Positions 46,587 through 53,374 of a stretch of DNA of 64,000 nt are shown here, piece by piece. Origin of the DNA: Rhodobacteraceae bacterium HTCC2150 (lineage in GTDB: Bacteria > Pseudomonadota > Alphaproteobacteria > Rhodobacterales > Rhodobacteraceae); the NCBI GenBank assembly GCA_000169395.1, contig AAXZ01000002.1:496001-560000 (forward strand), written 5' to 3'. Every line of letters starts with the position of its first letter. Within the stretch, counting starts at the first letter, position 1. The translations under genes were made by a program, and so were the position numbers. Under the pieces are notes generated by a model, which saw nothing but the letters and a program-made list of their open reading frames with translations, had not been told where the DNA came from and ran no database searches.

Positions 46587-47660
46587 TCAACGACGATAAT
46601 TGATTGCGTGATGCAAAATTGCCGCCTCGGATTTAAATAGATCACGACGGGCGTGCGCGCCATAAGAATAAGGGTCGTGCTGAAGATCGGGAAACTTACC
46701 TAATAAGCGTTCGCGTTCATAGGGATCCAACGTATCAAGCGTCGTGTTTGCGGGATGATAGCTTTCGCTTTCAACACCATTCGCCCAAACAATTTGATGA
46801 TTTTCAAACATGATGTGGTGATAGGCCGTTTCCTTGACCGAATAGTCTACAAAAATCGATTTATCGTTCACCAAATGCTCGGCAGAAACCAAAACCTCGT
46901 CAGTGTTAAACAACGATTGCGCAACTGACCCTTTGATCAACATACGATGTTGCGGGGAAACTAAAAGATCATCATCGGGTTCATCATCACCAAGCGCACC
47001 CGCTTTGATGCGGATTGGCCGCAATTCTGGCATTGCATAAAATCGTGCACCAGTCATGCGACGCGCACCCAGCCAAACAACCTCTTGCAAACCATTATCC
47101 TTGGTTTGCACCATGTCACCTTCTTGCACGTCCTGCACCAATTTTGGGCCATCTTCGGTCAAAACCGTTGTCCCAGAGGTAAAGCAAATAACCCCACCAC
47201 CAAAATCATTGGTTCGATGAACTGGCGCATCATCCCCTAAAGTACGAACCACCCAAAGATCGCGATCTTTTTGCGGCATGCCATTGGTGAACATGATCAA
47301 AGGCACTTGTCCCTTCGCAACCTCAACAAAAGTTGCGGGAAATGTCGCCTCGCCATCAGTCAGAACAAAACCCTTGTCAAACAAGGGTTCAGCATCGTCC
47401 CAATGCTTTGCTGCTATGCTTGTATCTATTTCATCTGCAAGCAAACGTTTGACAGATCGCGCGGCGCGATGTCGTAGTTCTAACTTACCATTTGAATCGC
47501 CGAGGGGGATCACCATATCAGGGCCATCGACCCTAACGGAAACACCGCTCCAACGCCACGTTGCACCATCTCGAACTGCCGACATTGCGGGATTATTTTC
47601 CCCGTCTATTTCTGTCTGCTGCCACCCGATGACGAACGTGCCCTTTACGCCCGTTCTCAT
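46587..47660 (-). CDS. Hint-domain protein (Hint_2 family)
   Basis: A 357-residue protein when started at the ATG at 47660; an in-frame GTG lies 18 bases further upstream. The Hint domain begins at VICFTSGTTVLTEDGPK, with the splice-type Cys in VICF, LVQDVQEGDMVQTKDNG and QHRMLIK, as in the Hint_2 family common in Rhodobacterales. The N-terminal 160 residues are a beta-rich region of unknown fold. Such proteins may self-process; no C-terminal extein or known toxin domain is visible. It is divergent from the KAS III operon. Confidence 0.85.
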   Translation of the reverse strand: MRTGVKGTFVIGWQQTEIDGENNPAMSAVRDGATWRWSGVSVRVDGPDMVIPLGDSNGKLELRHRAARSVKRLLADEIDTSIAAKHWDDAEPLFDKGFVLTDGEATFPATFVEVAKGQVPLIMFTNGMPQKDRDLWVVRTLGDDAPVHRTNDFGGGVICFTSGTTVLTEDGPKLVQDVQEGDMVQTKDNGLQEVVWLGARRMTGARFYAMPELRPIRIKAGALGDDEPDDDLLVSPQHRMLIKGSVAQSLFNTDEVLVSAEHLVNDKSIFVDYSVKETAYHHIMFENHQIVWANGVESESYHPANTTLDTLDPYERERLLGKFPDLQHDPYSYGAHARRDLFKSEAAILHHAINYRR

Positions 47661-47955
47661 TGCCTGTTTGCCTGCCACATTCGTATTTTGTTATTTTTTT
47701 ATTTGTCTAGCACGGGTGATTCGCTGTGCAAAGGATTAATTTCATTCCACAAATAAAATGCATTTTCATCGAAGTGCTTTTGGACAATTTTGCAGGATCA
47801 AACGGTCAACGGCGAAGTTTAAAGGTTAGGGCACTTTAAGGTTGGACAAATTGGCGGTGATCCACCTAGGATAAAGACGACTAAGTTTCATTCTAGAGTT
47901 GTATATTTTTTATTAATGACAATATTTAAAAATAGATAAATTGGTGGCCCCGCAC
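47661..47955. promoter_or_regulatory. Divergent AT-rich intergenic region (Hint gene / KAS III operon)
   Basis: The longest gap in the window. It is AT-rich, particularly 47900-47940, and must contain promoters for both flanking genes. I see no RNA gene and no strong palindrome; a weak -35-like ATGACA at 47916 with TAAATT at 47937 has a short 15-base spacer. Confidence 0.35.
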
Positions 47956-48948
47956 ATGAAAAGACCTATCCAAATCATCGGCTCAGGCGCGTACACACCG
48001 CAAAAATGCGTAATTTCAGGCGAAATTGATCGACGTTTAGAAAAACCAGATGGCTGGACCGAACGCACCTTTGGAATAAGCCAACGATTTTATGCATCAC
48101 CGTCAGAAACGACATCTCAAATGGGATGTTTTGCGGCACAGTCAGCGCTTGATAACGCGGGTATCCTAGGAAGTGATCTGGATTGTATCATGGCGGCATG
48201 TGGCGTCATGGAACAACCCATTCCATCAACCGCTGTGCTTATTCAAAACAAACTCGGCCTTGGGGAATCTGGCATTGCCGCCTTTGACATCAATTCAACC
48301 TGCCTTAGTTTTATCACGGCGCTGGATTTGGCCGCCGATGCAATAACGCTTGGCCGTTATGAAAAGGTTCTTGTTGTTTCTTCGGAAATTGCCTCGTGCG
48401 GTCTTGATTGGAACAATCCAGAAGCTGCTGCAATCTTTGGCGATGGGGCAGCAGCCATAATCGTTGAAAAATCAACCAATGGTTCCGGTATCATTGCAAG
48501 TCATATGGAAACCTATGGCGTATTGCAGGATGTTTGCCGATTGGAATCTGGCGGTACACGAATGCGACCAGAGGATGACATCGATGACTTTCTAGACCGT
48601 GCTAAGTTCAAAATGGATGGACGATCGGCTTTGTCCGCCTCGCTGTCGCATATGCCAAAATTTATTGACCGCCTAATGGCCAAGGCGCAGTTAGCCATTG
48701 ATGAAATCGACCTTGTCGTACCGCATCAGGCCAGTGGTATGTCCCTTACCATGATGCAACGCAGGTTTGAATTAAGCGACAGCCGTATCGTTAATAACTT
48801 TGTAGATATCGGCAATCAGATTGCGGCCTCTATTCCAAACGCTTTAGACACGGCGTTAAAGGCTGGCCGCATCAAGCGGGGCGACAAGATCATGTTGGTT
48901 GGAACGTCAGCCGGTATTTCCCTTGGGGCCATAATATTGGAGTACTAA
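47956..48948 (+). CDS. Beta-ketoacyl-ACP synthase III-like condensing enzyme
   Basis: A 330-residue thiolase-fold enzyme of the KAS III/FabH type using the ATG at 47956 (a TTG 15 bases upstream is the alternative). The triad is intact: C116 in NSTCLSF, H257 in VPHQAS and N287 in IGNQIAAS. It should condense an acyl thioester with malonyl-ACP or another acyl thioester. It is not in a fab operon, so a specialised pathway is likelier than primary fatty acid synthesis. It is the first of five tightly spaced genes (SDR, metallo-hydrolase, adenylating enzyme, glycosyltransferase), with the SDR 2 bp after its stop. Confidence 0.88.
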   Translation: MKRPIQIIGSGAYTPQKCVISGEIDRRLEKPDGWTERTFGISQRFYASPSETTSQMGCFAAQSALDNAGILGSDLDCIMAACGVMEQPIPSTAVLIQNKLGLGESGIAAFDINSTCLSFITALDLAADAITLGRYEKVLVVSSEIASCGLDWNNPEAAAIFGDGAAAIIVEKSTNGSGIIASHMETYGVLQDVCRLESGGTRMRPEDDIDDFLDRAKFKMDGRSALSASLSHMPKFIDRLMAKAQLAIDEIDLVVPHQASGMSLTMMQRRFELSDSRIVNNFVDIGNQIAASIPNALDTALKAGRIKRGDKIMLVGTSAGISLGAIILEY

Positions 48949-48950
48949 TC

Positions 48951-49940
48951 GTGTCAAAGACAGCATTAGTAACCGGCGCCACCGGCGGCTTGGGTCAACA
49001 TTTGTTACGCGCCCTTTCGCGCGAGGGTTATCAAATCCGCGCAAGTGGTCGAAACTCAGTTATCGGGAATAGTCTAAATTCATCAACTTGCCAGTTTATC
49101 GGTGGTGACCTGCGTGATTCAATGCATATCCAAGAACTTGTTAAAAACATCAATGTTGTTTTCCATTGTGCAGCGCTTTCTTCGCCTTGGGGGCCAATGT
49201 CAGATTTTAGAGCGATGAATGTGACGATGACACAAAACTTGTTGGATGCCGCCATTGCAACAAAGGTCGCGAAATTCATTCATGTTTCAACACCCAGCAT
49301 CTATTTCAACCATACCGATCAATTGGACATACCCGAAAATGCAAATCTTCCATCAAATTTCGTAAATGCATATGCAGCCACCAAAGCTGAGGCGGAACAA
49401 AGGGTTTTAGCGGCACCTATCCAAAGCGCGATCATTCGCCCACGAGGCATTTTTGGTGAATTTGACACCGTGTTAGTTCCGCGTATTTTGAAGGTTGCTG
49501 CAAAAGGAAAAATCCCAATCTTTAACCATGGCCAAGCAATGGTTGATGTTACCTATGGCGGCAATGTAGCTGACGCAATGGTTGCAATGGACCAGCGAAT
49601 AGATCGCCTAAACAACCGCATCTTTAATCTTTCCAACGATGAACCCATGCCGATTGCAACGCTTTTAAAAAAGGTTTTTGATGCCATGGGGCAAAACGTC
49701 AAACTAAAGAATATGCCCTTTGGATTAGTGCATAGCCTTACGCGCGTGATTGAGGCAACAAGCCTTGCACTTGGTCGAAAGTCTGAACCAAAATTTTTGC
49801 CCTACCCAGTTGCATTGATGAGATACAGTCAAACCTTGGATATCGCTGCCGCTAAACGTGAGCTTGGATACCGCCCAACGGTAACAGTGGATCAAGGTCT
49901 GGCGCGTTTTGTGGAATGGCACAAAGGTAAATCCCTGTGA
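48951..49940 (+). CDS. NAD(P)-dependent SDR, 3-beta-HSD/OleD-like epimerase family
   Basis: A 329-residue extended short-chain dehydrogenase starting with GTG (48951), with GGAG upstream. NAD(P) motif GATGGLG at residues 9-15, catalytic Y141 and K145 (YAATK) and S113 in HVSTPS. FHCAALSSPWG is the type of segment seen in the 3-beta-HSD/OleD subgroup that reduces 2-alkyl-3-ketoacids or steroid ketones. It would reduce the product of the upstream ketosynthase. It overlaps the next gene by 4 bp (GTGA). Sugar epimerase activity cannot be excluded. Confidence 0.85.
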   Translation: MSKTALVTGATGGLGQHLLRALSREGYQIRASGRNSVIGNSLNSSTCQFIGGDLRDSMHIQELVKNINVVFHCAALSSPWGPMSDFRAMNVTMTQNLLDAAIATKVAKFIHVSTPSIYFNHTDQLDIPENANLPSNFVNAYAATKAEAEQRVLAAPIQSAIIRPRGIFGEFDTVLVPRILKVAAKGKIPIFNHGQAMVDVTYGGNVADAMVAMDQRIDRLNNRIFNLSNDEPMPIATLLKKVFDAMGQNVKLKNMPFGLVHSLTRVIEATSLALGRKSEPKFLPYPVALMRYSQTLDIAAAKRELGYRPTVTVDQGLARFVEWHKGKSL

Positions 49941-50779
49941 AACGTTTATCTTTTCAGGCCATAAAATGCGGACATTGCACCCAAATCGAAAGGTTAACCA
50001 ATCGGGCGGCGCCGTGGCGTTGCTGTCAATTCCCCGCACTTGTCACCGTTATTGAGCATCCAACCCTTGGGTTTGTTGTTTTTGACACGGGCTATGCACC
50101 GGCATTCTTTGAAGCCACGCAAAATTGGCCAGAGCGCGCGCACAAGATCATTACGCCCGTGCGTCTCAACGATGACGAAAACCTTCAAAGTCAGTTGATT
50201 AAGCGCGGTATTAACCATGAAGACGTGGGTGCAGTTATTCTGTCCCATTTCCATGCGGATCACCTTTCAGGTATTGGATATTTTCCAAACGCGGCGATCT
50301 ATTGCGCAAAAGATGGATTAGACCAGATCAATGGTTTGTCTCGCTTTGGTGCCTTGCGCCGCGGGTTAATCAAATCATTGCTGCCGGTAGATTTCGAAAA
50401 TCGTGCCCAGTTTTTCACCGACTGCCCAACAATCACTTTACCCAGGGCCCTTTCCCCTTTTGAAAGTGGTTATGATCTGCTTGGGGATACCAGTCTTTTT
50501 GCAATTCCCCTTCCAGGTCATGCCTGTGGTCAATACGGATTGGCGTTTCTTGATGCCGATGACAGATATGTTTTCTTGATTGCAGATGCTGCTTGGTCGA
50601 TTGATGCGGTGATGAATTTTCATTTGCCCGCGCGCCTAACAAACCTAATGTTGCATCACGGAAAATCGTATCCAAAAACTTTATGGGCGCTTCATGAATT
50701 GTCAAAAAACACGCCTGATACTTTGATAATTCCAACTCATTGCGACACCACCCAGAAACAACTGGTGCAAAATGTTTGA
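49937..50779 (+). CDS. Metallo-beta-lactamase fold hydrolase, lactonase-like
   Basis: A 280-residue MBL-fold enzyme. Metal ligands: H104-x-H106-x-D108-H109 in SHFHADHLSG, H195 in PGHACGQ, D217 in IADAAW and H268 in IPTHC. The spacing is like AHL lactonases of the AiiA group, so ester, lactone or thioester hydrolysis is plausible. The N-terminus has a Cys-rich start (CGHC, RCC) which is unusual. It starts 4 bp inside the SDR gene and overlaps the adenylating enzyme gene by 8 bp. Within this operon it could release or open the acyl product. Confidence 0.82.
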   Translation: MKRLSFQAIKCGHCTQIERLTNRAAPWRCCQFPALVTVIEHPTLGFVVFDTGYAPAFFEATQNWPERAHKIITPVRLNDDENLQSQLIKRGINHEDVGAVILSHFHADHLSGIGYFPNAAIYCAKDGLDQINGLSRFGALRRGLIKSLLPVDFENRAQFFTDCPTITLPRALSPFESGYDLLGDTSLFAIPLPGHACGQYGLAFLDADDRYVFLIADAAWSIDAVMNFHLPARLTNLMLHHGKSYPKTLWALHELSKNTPDTLIIPTHCDTTQKQLVQNV

Positions 50780-52109
50780 TACGCTTGTGCTGTTACGACA
50801 ATACATTCGAGTCCGTCATTTATTACGATTCAAATCACGTGTTGAATTGGTTGCGTATCAAGACAGAATGCTCGCAAAGTTTTTTAGCAAAACACTGCAC
50901 AAGTCCACTTTCTACAGCGCATTCAAACAACGGGCATTGGATGATTTTCCCATTATGAACAAAGCCAAGATGCTCGAAAATTTCGACGCCTTAAACAGTG
51001 CAAGTCTTTCATTACAAGATGCAATGGCCGAGGCGGAACAAGGCGAAAAGAGCCGCAATTTCAAAACAACGATCAATGGCGTATCCGTCGGGCTTTCAAC
51101 TGGAACTTCAGGCACGCGCGGTGTGTTTTTGGTATCTGATCGCGAACGCATGGGTTGGGCTGGAACCATTCTAGGCCGCATGTTGCCCGGCTCAATTCTA
51201 GCAAAACATCGCATTGCCTTTTTCCTGCGTGCTAACAACAACCTTTATGAAAGCGTTGCATCAAAAGGACGAATTGAGTTTCAGTTTTTCGATTTGATGT
51301 CCAGTATGCCCCAGCTTTTGGCAGACCTTCACACGTACAAGCCCACAATTTTGATTGCCCCTGCCCAAGTTCTTGGAATATTAGCCCAAGCGCAAATTCG
51401 AGGTGATATTGAAATTTCGCCAGATAAAATCATTTCAGTAGCCGAAGTTCTTTATGATGATGACGCGGCCCAAATTTCAAATGCGTTTGGCAAACCGGTT
51501 TCCCAAGTTTATCAATGCACAGAGGGGTTTTTGGGTTATTCATGCACACATAATCGATTACATTTAAACGAAGCGTTGATGATCATTGAGCCGGACTGGC
51601 TGGATGAACAAAAAGAACGCTTTTGCCCAATCATCACAGATTTTAGCCGCGAAACACAGTTATTCATTCGACATCGATTGGATGATATTTTGACGCGGGA
51701 TCCTAATCCTTGCCCATGTGGATCACCCGAAATGGTTATTAAACGAATTGAAGGGCGCACAGATGATGTTTTGGTGCTGCGCGATCTAGCTGGCGTTCCT
51801 CAAACTTTAATGCCCGACTATGTCACCCGTGCCATTGCTGCCTGCCCGTCTGTTTTAGATTTCAAAATTGAACAGAACACAGATGACGAATTGGTTGTAT
51901 TCCTTTTGGCAAGTGACAAACAACTTGCGAAAGCCGAAACTATCCAAACCCTTGCGAAACTATTTGAACGACATAACCTCCGCTCACCAACCTTAACTAT
52001 AGAAGAACAACCTAGTAATGACCCCACACAGAAAAGACGCCGTGTAGTGCGTGCAAAAAACATCGGATTGCCCCAAAATGAATTTAAGCAAAAGGGTCAA
52101 CGGAAATGA
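50772..52109 (+). CDS. Putative adenylate-forming enzyme (F390 synthetase-related)
   Basis: A 445-residue AMP-forming ligase of the F390-synthetase/PaaK-like type, the hypothetical adenylate-forming group found near such operons. The P-loop STGTSGTRG lies at residues 109-117; AEVLYDD, YQCTEGFLG, FIRHRLDDIL and IEGRTDDVLVL are the later adenylation motifs. CPCGSP could bind zinc. It probably activates an acid (fatty, aryl or amino acid) with ATP. The start overlaps the metallo-hydrolase by 8 bp, and the glycosyltransferase overlaps the end by 4 bp, so the genes are translationally coupled. Confidence 0.82.
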   Translation: MFDTLVLLRQYIRVRHLLRFKSRVELVAYQDRMLAKFFSKTLHKSTFYSAFKQRALDDFPIMNKAKMLENFDALNSASLSLQDAMAEAEQGEKSRNFKTTINGVSVGLSTGTSGTRGVFLVSDRERMGWAGTILGRMLPGSILAKHRIAFFLRANNNLYESVASKGRIEFQFFDLMSSMPQLLADLHTYKPTILIAPAQVLGILAQAQIRGDIEISPDKIISVAEVLYDDDAAQISNAFGKPVSQVYQCTEGFLGYSCTHNRLHLNEALMIIEPDWLDEQKERFCPIITDFSRETQLFIRHRLDDILTRDPNPCPCGSPEMVIKRIEGRTDDVLVLRDLAGVPQTLMPDYVTRAIAACPSVLDFKIEQNTDDELVVFLLASDKQLAKAETIQTLAKLFERHNLRSPTLTIEEQPSNDPTQKRRRVVRAKNIGLPQNEFKQKGQRK

Positions 52110-53374
52110 AAATTTCCATTCAATCATTGGGAACATTGGGCGATGTTGTCCCTTATCTAGGCCTTGCCCAAGGATTGATTGCGGCAGGCCATGAGGTTTC
52201 GTTTTTATCAACCGAAGAATTCACAGGCATCATTTCCGAGCATGGCATTTCTACCCCGCCTCCTATTCCAGTAAAAATTACCGAATGGATGATTGAGGCC
52301 GAAGAACGTGGAACACTTTCAAATCCGCTAACTTTCCTACGTGATTGGAAACGGATGGTGAAACCAACGATCGATGGCGCATTTGACGCGTCGGTTTTTG
52401 CGGCCAAAGGTGCTGACCTCGTCATTTCCAACTTGGCCGTGACCCCAAGAGCCGCAGCAGAAATCCACAAAATCCCCCTAATATTTGCGTCCCAGCAGCC
52501 CGTTTTAGCAAATACCGGTCAGGTACCTTGCGCACTAGTCACGGGCCGAAACCTTTGGCAATTGGGAAATAGGACAACCTATCTGGCACGTACACTCCTA
52601 GAAATCGTGGCCAATGCATCCGTTATGAAACACCGACGAAATGCAGGTCTGTCACGAAACATTTTTCCATCAATGCGATCCCATTTGGGGAAACCCTTGC
52701 CACTTATCACAACAATTGCGCGCCCTTTGATTGATAGTCCACCCTCCGACTGGCATGCGAATAATTACCTTACAAATTACTGGCGTGCCGCCCTAAACCG
52801 AAACTGGGCGTGCCCACCTGAATTGTCGGCATTTTTTCAGTCTGGCCCGCCACCAATCTATGTCGGGCTTGGGTCGATGACATTAAAGAAACCAGAAATT
52901 TTCGCCAATGCCGTCTTAGAAGCACTTAAGAAATCGGGTGATCGCGCACTTTTATCGACAAAGCACTTTGCTTCCTTCTTGCCAGATGACAGCCCACATA
53001 TGCTTTGCGATTTTGCACCACATGATCAAATATTTCCGCATTGTGCATCGATCATCCACCACGGTGGTGCTGGTACCACAACTTCGGCCCTTGCTTCAGG
53101 CCGCCCCCAAGCAATCATTCCGCATTTTCTCGATCAATTTTGGCATGCGCGTCATATGAATGCGCTTGGTCTTGTACCAAAATTTGCATCAACACTAAAA
53201 ATCACGCCCCAAAAAGTTGAGAAAATGTTGCATCATTTGAAAGATCCAAATTCTATCCAAATTGCAAAGTCGGCCCAAACAAAACTAAATTCTCAAAACG
53301 GTGTAGAAAGAGCCATCAACATCATTGAACGCCACGTTAGCGATTTTTCCAGCGACTTATCCAACCACCGCTAA
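52106..53374 (+). CDS. GT1-type glycosyltransferase (UGT/sterol glucosyltransferase-like)
   Basis: A 422-residue GT-B glycosyltransferase resembling those acting on sterols, macrolides and glycopeptides. The N-terminal acceptor domain starts SIQSLGTLGDVVPYLGLA; the donor-binding region has HHGGAGTT (H318-T325), and PHFLDQFWHARHM. It is expected to attach a sugar from a nucleotide sugar to a lipophilic acceptor. Its position as last gene of the ketosynthase operon suggests it glycosylates that operon's product. It overlaps the upstream gene by 4 bp, and its last 38 bp overlap the DedA-like gene on the other strand. Confidence 0.87.
   Translation: MKISIQSLGTLGDVVPYLGLAQGLIAAGHEVSFLSTEEFTGIISEHGISTPPPIPVKITEWMIEAEERGTLSNPLTFLRDWKRMVKPTIDGAFDASVFAAKGADLVISNLAVTPRAAAEIHKIPLIFASQQPVLANTGQVPCALVTGRNLWQLGNRTTYLARTLLEIVANASVMKHRRNAGLSRNIFPSMRSHLGKPLPLITTIARPLIDSPPSDWHANNYLTNYWRAALNRNWACPPELSAFFQSGPPPIYVGLGSMTLKKPEIFANAVLEALKKSGDRALLSTKHFASFLPDDSPHMLCDFAPHDQIFPHCASIIHHGGAGTTTSALASGRPQAIIPHFLDQFWHARHMNALGLVPKFASTLKITPQKVEKMLHHLKDPNSIQIAKSAQTKLNSQNGVERAINIIERHVSDFSSDLSNHR

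What the first reader, a model, noticed from the sequence alone, without database searches (positions are those of the whole stretch)
47941..53374. Unnamed five-gene biosynthetic operon: KAS III, OleD-like SDR, MBL hydrolase, F390-synthetase-like ligase, GT1 glycosyltransferase
The sequence shows five consecutive genes joined by gaps of 2 bp or overlaps of 4 to 8 bp, so they are one translation-coupled unit. Catalytic residues are intact in each: C116/H257/N287 in the ketosynthase, YxxxK in the SDR, HxHxDH plus H195, D217 and H268 in the hydrolase, STGTSGTRG in the ligase and HHGGAGTT in the glycosyltransferase. Family knowledge: condensing enzyme, reductase, adenylating enzyme and lactonase recall the Ole (olefin/beta-lactone) pathway, but here an MBL enzyme stands where an alpha/beta hydrolase would be, and a lipophile glycosyltransferase is added. 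I infer production of a glycosylated acyl compound.
Basis: partly seen in the sequence, partly recalled or inferred. Interest (0 to 1): 0.75.

Follow-up and report, generated by a model that had tools for sequence, protein, structure and literature searches.

The report
Widespread lipid-building gene cassette, sugar-tailed version
Four neighbouring enzyme genes that together look able to build and activate a fatty molecule recur in the same order across many bacteria with different finishing genes, and here the finishing gene is one that would attach a sugar; what the molecule is remains unknown.

Summary
The five genes are real and at the stated coordinates; only the first start codon is doubtful. 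The first four (KAS III, extended SDR, MBL hydrolase, F390-synthetase-like ligase) are a conserved cassette: that order holds in 79 of 95 ligase loci examined, window included, in several phyla. A related cassette is in 672 of 5,426 complete E. coli genomes. The ligase passes NCBI model TIGR02304 (442.5 bits, cut-off 251.9). The KAS lies outside the FabH rows and the ligase outside the PaaK-like rows used. The fifth gene is not conserved: neighbouring genes vary, and the main sets (ATP-grasp/GNAT/Rieske; PAP2/hydroxylase/desaturase; sulfotransferase) were not found together in any of the 95 loci. A GT1 directly after the ligase was found only in the window; one rearranged relative (L041) has other glycosyltransferases close by. 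The Ole comparison holds only as an analogy: 83 of 83 cassette KAS lack a glutamate at the OleA/PpyS position. Best reading: an undescribed lipid-scaffold pathway with exchangeable end groups, here glycosylated. Product, substrates and step order are unknown.

The parts
47956..48948 (+). KAS III-type condensing enzyme (NF005541/PRK07204 group; MxnB/CorB-like); ORF opens at TTG 47941, likely start ATG 47956
   Evidence: (404.4 bits, cut-off 402, scanned from the TTG start)
48951..49940 (+). extended SDR (3beta-HSD/OleD-like ketoreductase), Ser113/Tyr141/Lys145 intact
49937..50779 (+). metallo-beta-lactamase-fold hydrolase, lactonase-like; seven metal ligands intact, lactonase Tyr replaced by Trp220
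50772..52109 (+). F390-synthetase-related adenylate-forming ligase (TIGR02304), PaaK-type fold
   Evidence: (442.5 bits, cut-off 251.9)
52106..53374 (+). GT1 glycosyltransferase (EryCIII-like C-terminal domain, HHGGAGTT); window-specific end gene of the operon

Best explanation
A four-enzyme cassette builds and activates a fatty-acyl-derived scaffold, and a swappable last step decorates it. Proposed steps: (1) the KAS III forms a C-C bond between an acyl thioester and an already activated partner (malonyl or beta-ketoacyl thioester), giving a beta-keto product; (2) the OleD-like SDR reduces the keto group to a hydroxyl; (3) the MBL enzyme hydrolyses a lactone or thioester, freeing the hydroxy acid; (4) the F390-synthetase-like ligase adenylates the carboxylate so that it can be joined to CoA, an amine or a hydroxyl; (5) in this organism the GT1 puts a sugar on the hydroxyl or carboxyl. 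Other bacteria carry instead a sulfotransferase, an ATP-grasp/GNAT pair, a DUF3419 protein or a PAP2/hydroxylase/desaturase set. Shown: gene order, conservation, intact catalytic residues, modules not found together. Inferred: substrates, order of steps, product.
For: Order KAS-SDR-MBL-ligase in 79 of 95 loci, window included. Distances of the four proteins correlate (Spearman 0.67-0.83 over 79 loci; 0 of 300 permutations as high for each pair). Catalytic residues kept. The KAS's two best PDB matches are 4v2p (listed as 'ketosynthase'; MxnB from recall) and 4yuc CorB; MxnB and CorB join two acyl chains according to PMC4578411 (parts 1-2 of 3 read). Cassette KAS plus these two are split from FabH (2 rows) and OleA (4 rows) at 99/97. 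The genome's best FabH is elsewhere (404.5 bits). SDR best NCBIfam model is OleD, a 2-alkyl-3-oxoalkanoate reductase. The 20 best PDB folds to the MBL model are lactonase entries, of a few distinct proteins. Ligase model resembles PaaK-family AMP-ligases. Neighbour genes are of lipid or end-group type: OlsE-like hydroxylase (78.3 of 475 bits) and Rieske protein nearest a sterol monooxygenase (68.8 of 600), desaturase and DUF3419, sulfotransferase. GT best PDB matches are sterol 3-beta-glucosyltransferases. Rearranged relative L041 has a cassette-type SDR, a GT21-type and an EryCIII-like glycosyltransferase facing KAS-MBL-ligase.
Against: No product, substrate or expression data. Correlated distances are also expected from shared descent. 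PaaK-family ligases commonly act on aryl acids, so the scaffold need not be a plain lipid. The GT at this place is in 1 of 95 loci and may act on something else. 14 of 95 loci, window included, carry none of the accessory genes sought. KAS fit to NF005541 is only 2.4 bits above its cut-off. A Glu three residues before the OleA position (E91) is present in the window and in 49 of 83 cassette KAS; whether it could play the base was not tested. The genome has a ketosynthase domain in a 2,182-residue open frame on another contig, so a PKS may exist that could feed the KAS.
Confidence: 0.5

Rival explanations
1. Ole-like logic with non-homologous parts: the KAS joins two fatty acyl chains head to head, the SDR makes the 2-alkyl-3-hydroxy acid, the ligase closes a beta-lactone as OleC does, and the MBL enzyme opens or processes it where OleB (alpha/beta hydrolase) acts in Ole (Ole roles recalled).
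For: All four activities have a counterpart; SDR nearest to OleD; MBL lactonase-like; E91 near the OleA Glu position in 49 of 83 KAS.
Against: I, L or M in 83 of 83 cassette KAS at the OleA/PpyS Glu position; KAS outside the OleA branch; ligase PaaK-type; end-group modules need a retained functional group, whereas Ole ends in an olefin (recalled).
Confidence: 0.15
2. Aryl pathway: the PaaK-like ligase supplies an aromatic acyl thioester to the KAS (as PqsA feeds PqsD, recalled), the MBL enzyme acts as a PqsE-like thioesterase, the SDR reduces, and the GT glycosylates a phenol or alcohol.
For: Structural neighbours of the ligase include entries with salicylic acid (NatL2), 3-amino-4-hydroxybenzoic acid (ClxA) and phenylacetyl adenylate (PaaK1); a PQS biosynthetic enzyme (3h76, 82.9 bits) and PqsC are weaker PDB matches of the KAS.
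Against: Accessory enzymes are mostly lipid-type; the KAS scores 198-207 bits to CorB/4v2p against 82.9 to 3h76; the MBL's top folds are lactonases.
Confidence: 0.15
3. The four core genes work together as described but the GT is an unrelated gene that happens to be co-transcribed.
For: GT at this place in only 1 of 95 loci. In the 9 other family genomes with a GT match at 1e-15 (27-34% identity) only G229 has a strong TIGR02304 match, 65 kb from its nearest GT; G245 has a weak one and the other 7 none.
Against: 4 bp overlap with the ligase gene; it takes the place where other cassettes carry end-group genes; L041 has glycosyltransferases close to the core enzymes.
Confidence: 0.2

Closest known systems
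NCBIfam TIGR02304 F390 synthetase-related protein
   Same: ligase passes its equivalog cut-off (442.5 vs 251.9 bits)
   Different: a family name without a tested function that I could find; no description of the cassette was found in ten searches of an open-licence library
MxnB / CorB (myxopyronin and corallopyronin pyrone synthases)
   Same: best PDB matches of the KAS (4v2p, taken as MxnB from recall, and 4yuc CorB); same Cys/His/Asn; CorB V94 aligns with I94
   Different: those act beside PKS assembly lines (recalled); none of the five operon proteins is a PKS, though one PKS-sized frame is on another contig
OleABCD olefin/beta-lactone pathway
   Same: condensing enzyme, OleD-like SDR, adenylating ligase, hydrolase
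   Different: KAS has no Glu at the OleA position, SDR far below the OleD cut-off, MBL instead of alpha/beta hydrolase, variable end-group genes
N-acylhomoserine lactonases (GcL, AhlX, AiiA, AiiB)
   Same: best folds of the MBL model, same metal-ligand pattern
   Different: the Tyr of the DxxY stretch (seen in 6cgy, 2r2d, 9khq) is Trp in 87 and Tyr in 4 of 91 cassette proteins; 73 vs 390 bits for the best lactonase model
Sterol 3-beta-glucosyltransferase / GtfD-type GT1
   Same: best PDB matches of the GT
   Different: low similarity; acceptor unknown

Membership tests
TIGR02304 F390 synthetase-related | model score over curated cut-off | tested here: met
   442.5 vs 251.9 bits
NF005541 (PRK07204) KAS III | model score over curated cut-off | tested here: met
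   404.4 vs 402 bits, narrow
housekeeping FabH | TIGR00747 cut-off; groups with FabH | tested here: not met
   238.5 vs 292.1 bits; another gene of the genome scores 404.5; outside the branch of 2 FabH rows
OleA / PpyS head-to-head synthases | catalytic Glu (OleA E117, PpyS E105) | tested here: not met
   I, L or M in 83 of 83; mapped through CorB V94 (PMC4578411 part 1) and seen as Glu in 4 OleA-like sequences. E91, three residues earlier, in 49 of 83
OleD | NF042422 cut-off | tested here: not met
   188.7 vs 580 bits
Ole pathway | OleB alpha/beta hydrolase in the cluster | tested here: not met
   the hydrolase is PF00753 MBL; no alpha/beta hydrolase among the five genes
OleC | beta-lactone formation | not testable with these tools
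   needs enzymology
PaaK phenylacetate-CoA ligase | groups with PaaK-like proteins | tested here: not met
   55 rows labelled cassette (window and L035, ligase alone, included) form one side against 9 weak TIGR02304 matches (SH-aLRT 99, quick tree). Of those 9, three were scanned: L019 is nearest PaaK (608.6 of 646.3 bits), L012 and L013 pass no model
Coenzyme F390 synthetase proper (TIGR03335) | model match | tested here: not met
   TIGR03335 is not among the window ligase's NCBIfam matches at E <= 0.001, while it matches L019
MxnB/CorB pyrone synthases | PKS gene context | tested here: inconclusive
   none of the five operon proteins or the two flanking ones scanned is a PKS; a ketosynthase in a 2,182-residue frame lies on another contig
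AHL lactonase | metal ligands plus Tyr and model cut-off | tested here: not met
   ligands met; Tyr->Trp; 73 vs 390 bits
GT1 / EryCIII-like glycosyltransferase | PF06722 gathering score | tested here: met
   52.4 vs 31.7 bits

The most novel reading that the evidence does not exclude
KAS-SDR-MBL-F390-ligase is an undescribed, phylum-crossing pathway for one class of lipid (membrane lipid, surfactant or signal) built as a fixed scaffold core with mutually exclusive end-group modules: ATP-grasp/GNAT, sulfate, DUF3419, PAP2/desaturase and, here, sugar. About 12% of complete E. coli genomes would carry it too.
Probability: 0.5. Interest if true: 0.75.

Novelty: new variant of a known kind. Interest (0 to 1): 0.5.

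Why it matters
A compact gene set found across several phyla, including a well-studied species in a fraction of its strains, may make a molecule nobody has named. The swap of end-group genes predicts a testable structural series, and four to five small enzymes can be reconstituted.

Tried and rejected
A viral relative of the ligase was sought (none confirmed). Defence-system models matched none of the five proteins. An empty site was sought through the neighbouring VTT/DedA-type gene in 41 genomes: matched only in the window's own, so no comparison was possible. Promoter-like and terminator-like sites were no more than in shuffles (10 vs mean 10.4; 8 vs mean 9.0). Housekeeping FabH and PaaK were considered and rejected. 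GT as part of the conserved unit was rejected.

Ten paper searches (five of them returned no paper) listed no title or abstract start that describes the cassette. The library is open-licence PMC only; supplements were not searched. Opened: PMC4578411 (parts 1-2 of 3); passages only of PMC2649909 (one F390-annotated ligase in a Desulfotalea cluster that the passages describe as FASII-type), PMC12304814 (butenolide by fusion of two polyketide chains, different enzymes) and PMC10850344 (unrelated). The other nine papers were seen as listings only.

The 80 loci are the best of at least 581 relatives, so they are not a random sample. Six further annotated plasmid records were opened after the 95-locus count and are not in it: by their annotation five show KAS, SDR, MBL, ligase in order (one with an ATP-grasp gene between KAS and SDR) and one (L155) has them spread out.
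Full report
Observation. The five ORFs are on the + strand at the stated positions, with a 2 bp gap and overlaps of 4, 8 and 4 bp. The likely start of the first is ATG 47956, not TTG 47941: NF005541 matches from residue 6, and GGTGG stands about 8 nt before the ATG.

Families. The ligase matches TIGR02304 at 442.5 bits (cut-off 251.9) and has no Pfam match at 0.001. The KAS matches NF005541 at 404.4 (cut-off 402) and scores below the FabH cut-off. The SDR is nearest OleD but at 188.7 of the 580 bits needed. The MBL is nearest AttM-type lactonases at 73 of 390. The GT has EryCIII-like C and UDPGT matches over their gathering scores.

Conservation in the family. Of 295 family genomes, 5 have TIGR02304 over its cut-off, the window's own included; 53 have some match at E <= 0.001, most of them weak. 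Around the 10 best ligases other than the window's own, KAS-SDR-MBL-ligase stands in order in 8, one (L041) has KAS-MBL-ligase with an SDR on the other strand, and one (L035) has the ligase alone. In a class-wide draw of 385 genomes 2 had a ligase at E <= 1e-40, the window's own included. The cassette is thus sporadic near home.

Conservation elsewhere. The 80 best of at least 581 relatives in named genomes, 11 family regions including the window, and 4 plasmid records gave 95 loci. 79 have the order KAS-SDR-MBL-ligase, 3 have the KAS downstream, and 13 are partial, several of them at contig ends. Record titles include Paenibacillus, Brevibacillus, Burkholderia, Ralstonia, Providencia, Serratia, Xenorhabdus, Arcobacter, an Elusimicrobiales MAG, cyanobacteria (partial cassettes) and candidate groups. 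Some are MAGs, where binning may err. Distances of the four proteins correlate over 79 loci (0.67-0.83, 0 of 300 permutations as high), which shared descent alone could also produce.

E. coli. A cassette with PAP2, hydroxylase and desaturase genes matches in 672 of 5,426 complete genomes, in 671 over at least 80% of the query. In strain 81009 it lies between narI and tRNA-Tyr/purU, where K-12 has ychS, rttR, tpr and tRNA-Tyr genes.

End modules. In the 95 loci, seed proteins taken from the loci themselves found ATP-grasp in 48, GNAT in 37 (35 with ATP-grasp), Rieske in 13 (all with GNAT), PAP2 in 24, fatty-acid hydroxylase in 22, desaturase in 21 (both nested in the PAP2 set), sulfotransferase in 5 and DUF3419 in 2 (one of these with GNAT and Rieske). 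No locus has ATP-grasp or GNAT together with PAP2, nor either set with the sulfotransferase. 14 loci, window included, have none. An ATP-grasp-type gene sits between KAS and SDR in 36 loci; all 36 match the ATP-grasp cluster found after the ligase in others. Seeds were sought in the whole fetched stretch, so nearness is not strict, and exclusivity follows clade to some extent.

The GT. A window-like GT next to the ligase and on its strand was found only in the window. Ten of 290 family genomes, own included, have a GT match at 1e-15, the others at 27-34% identity. Of those 9, only G229 has a strong TIGR02304 match, and its nearest GT is 65 kb away; G245 has a weak match, the other 7 none. In L041 the SDR, a Glyco_transf_21-type and an EryCIII-like glycosyltransferase lie convergent to KAS-MBL-ligase. 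The latter matches the window GT over 59 residues only (34%), so recruitment may have been independent.

KAS mechanism. The best PDB matches are 4v2p ('ketosynthase', MxnB from recall) and 4yuc CorB. According to PMC4578411 (parts 1-2 of 3 read), PpyS uses E105 and OleA E117, while MxnB and CorB have V94. CorB V94 aligns with window I94. Cassette KAS have I in 48, L in 34 and M in 1 of 83. Four OleA-like sequences, from genomes with OleD over its cut-off, show Glu at this place. Against this, a Glu three residues earlier (E91) is in 49 of 83 and its role was not tested. The KAS tree puts 83 cassette proteins plus MxnB/CorB on one side (99/97) of 2 FabH and 4 OleA rows; whether MxnB/CorB lie inside the cassette set is unresolved (86/49; the cassette set is whole by itself in 12% of bootstrap trees). 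So two unactivated acyl-CoAs are less likely as substrates than an activated partner.

MBL and ligase. The MBL model (pLDDT 96.2, 37 sequences) is closest to lactonases in its 20 best matches. A Tyr seen in three lactonases at the DxxY position is Trp in 87 and Tyr in 4 of 91. The ligase model (pLDDT 90.0, 34 sequences) is closest to PaaK-family ligases. Its C258, H264, C314 and C316 are the same in 95 of 95, which looks like a metal site (inference). In the ligase tree 55 cassette-labelled rows form one side against 9 weaker relatives (quick method, long branches flagged by the program); of three of those scanned, L019 is nearest PaaK and two pass no model.

Genome context. The genome has five ketosynthase-domain matches, one in a 2,182-residue open frame on another contig, so a PKS may be present; any link with the operon is untested.

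Reading. The data support a conserved scaffold-building core with variable end groups, and make a glycosylated lipid the best guess for the window. They do not identify the product, the substrate or the order of steps. Roles of Ole and Pqs enzymes are recalled unless a paper is named.

Print. Ten searches of an open-licence library found no description of this cassette (calls listed under Tried and rejected); subscription papers and supplements were not searched.

Noticed in passing
L041 4843-8721 (+) and 8705-11606 (-): Rearranged relative in the same bacterial family: SDR, Glyco_transf_21-type GT and EryCIII-like GT convergent with KAS-MBL-ligase.
   Followed up: partly
L122 6191-13072; L161 3501-10382: Seven-gene version (core plus PAP2, sterol-desaturase-family and desaturase genes) matching in 672 of 5,426 E. 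coli genomes, between narI and purU in the two records opened.
   Followed up: partly
L155 330-10263: On a Pseudomonas megaplasmid, genes annotated KAS III and NAD(P)-dependent oxidoreductase lie several kb before MBL-ligase, among hypothetical genes.
   Followed up: no
window 53337-53374: GT gene and a VTT/DedA-type gene overlap tail to tail by 38 bp; the latter's protein matched only the window's own genome among 41 at 1e-20.
   Followed up: partly
window 46587-47678: Hint-domain (PF13403) protein on the - strand just upstream of the operon.
   Followed up: no
window 50772-52109 and relatives: Cys258, His264, Cys314, Cys316 identical in 95 of 95 ligases, a possible metal site.
   Followed up: no
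own genome, C25:595362-596117 (outside the window): Ketosynthase domain inside a 2,182-residue open frame, PKS-sized.
   Followed up: no
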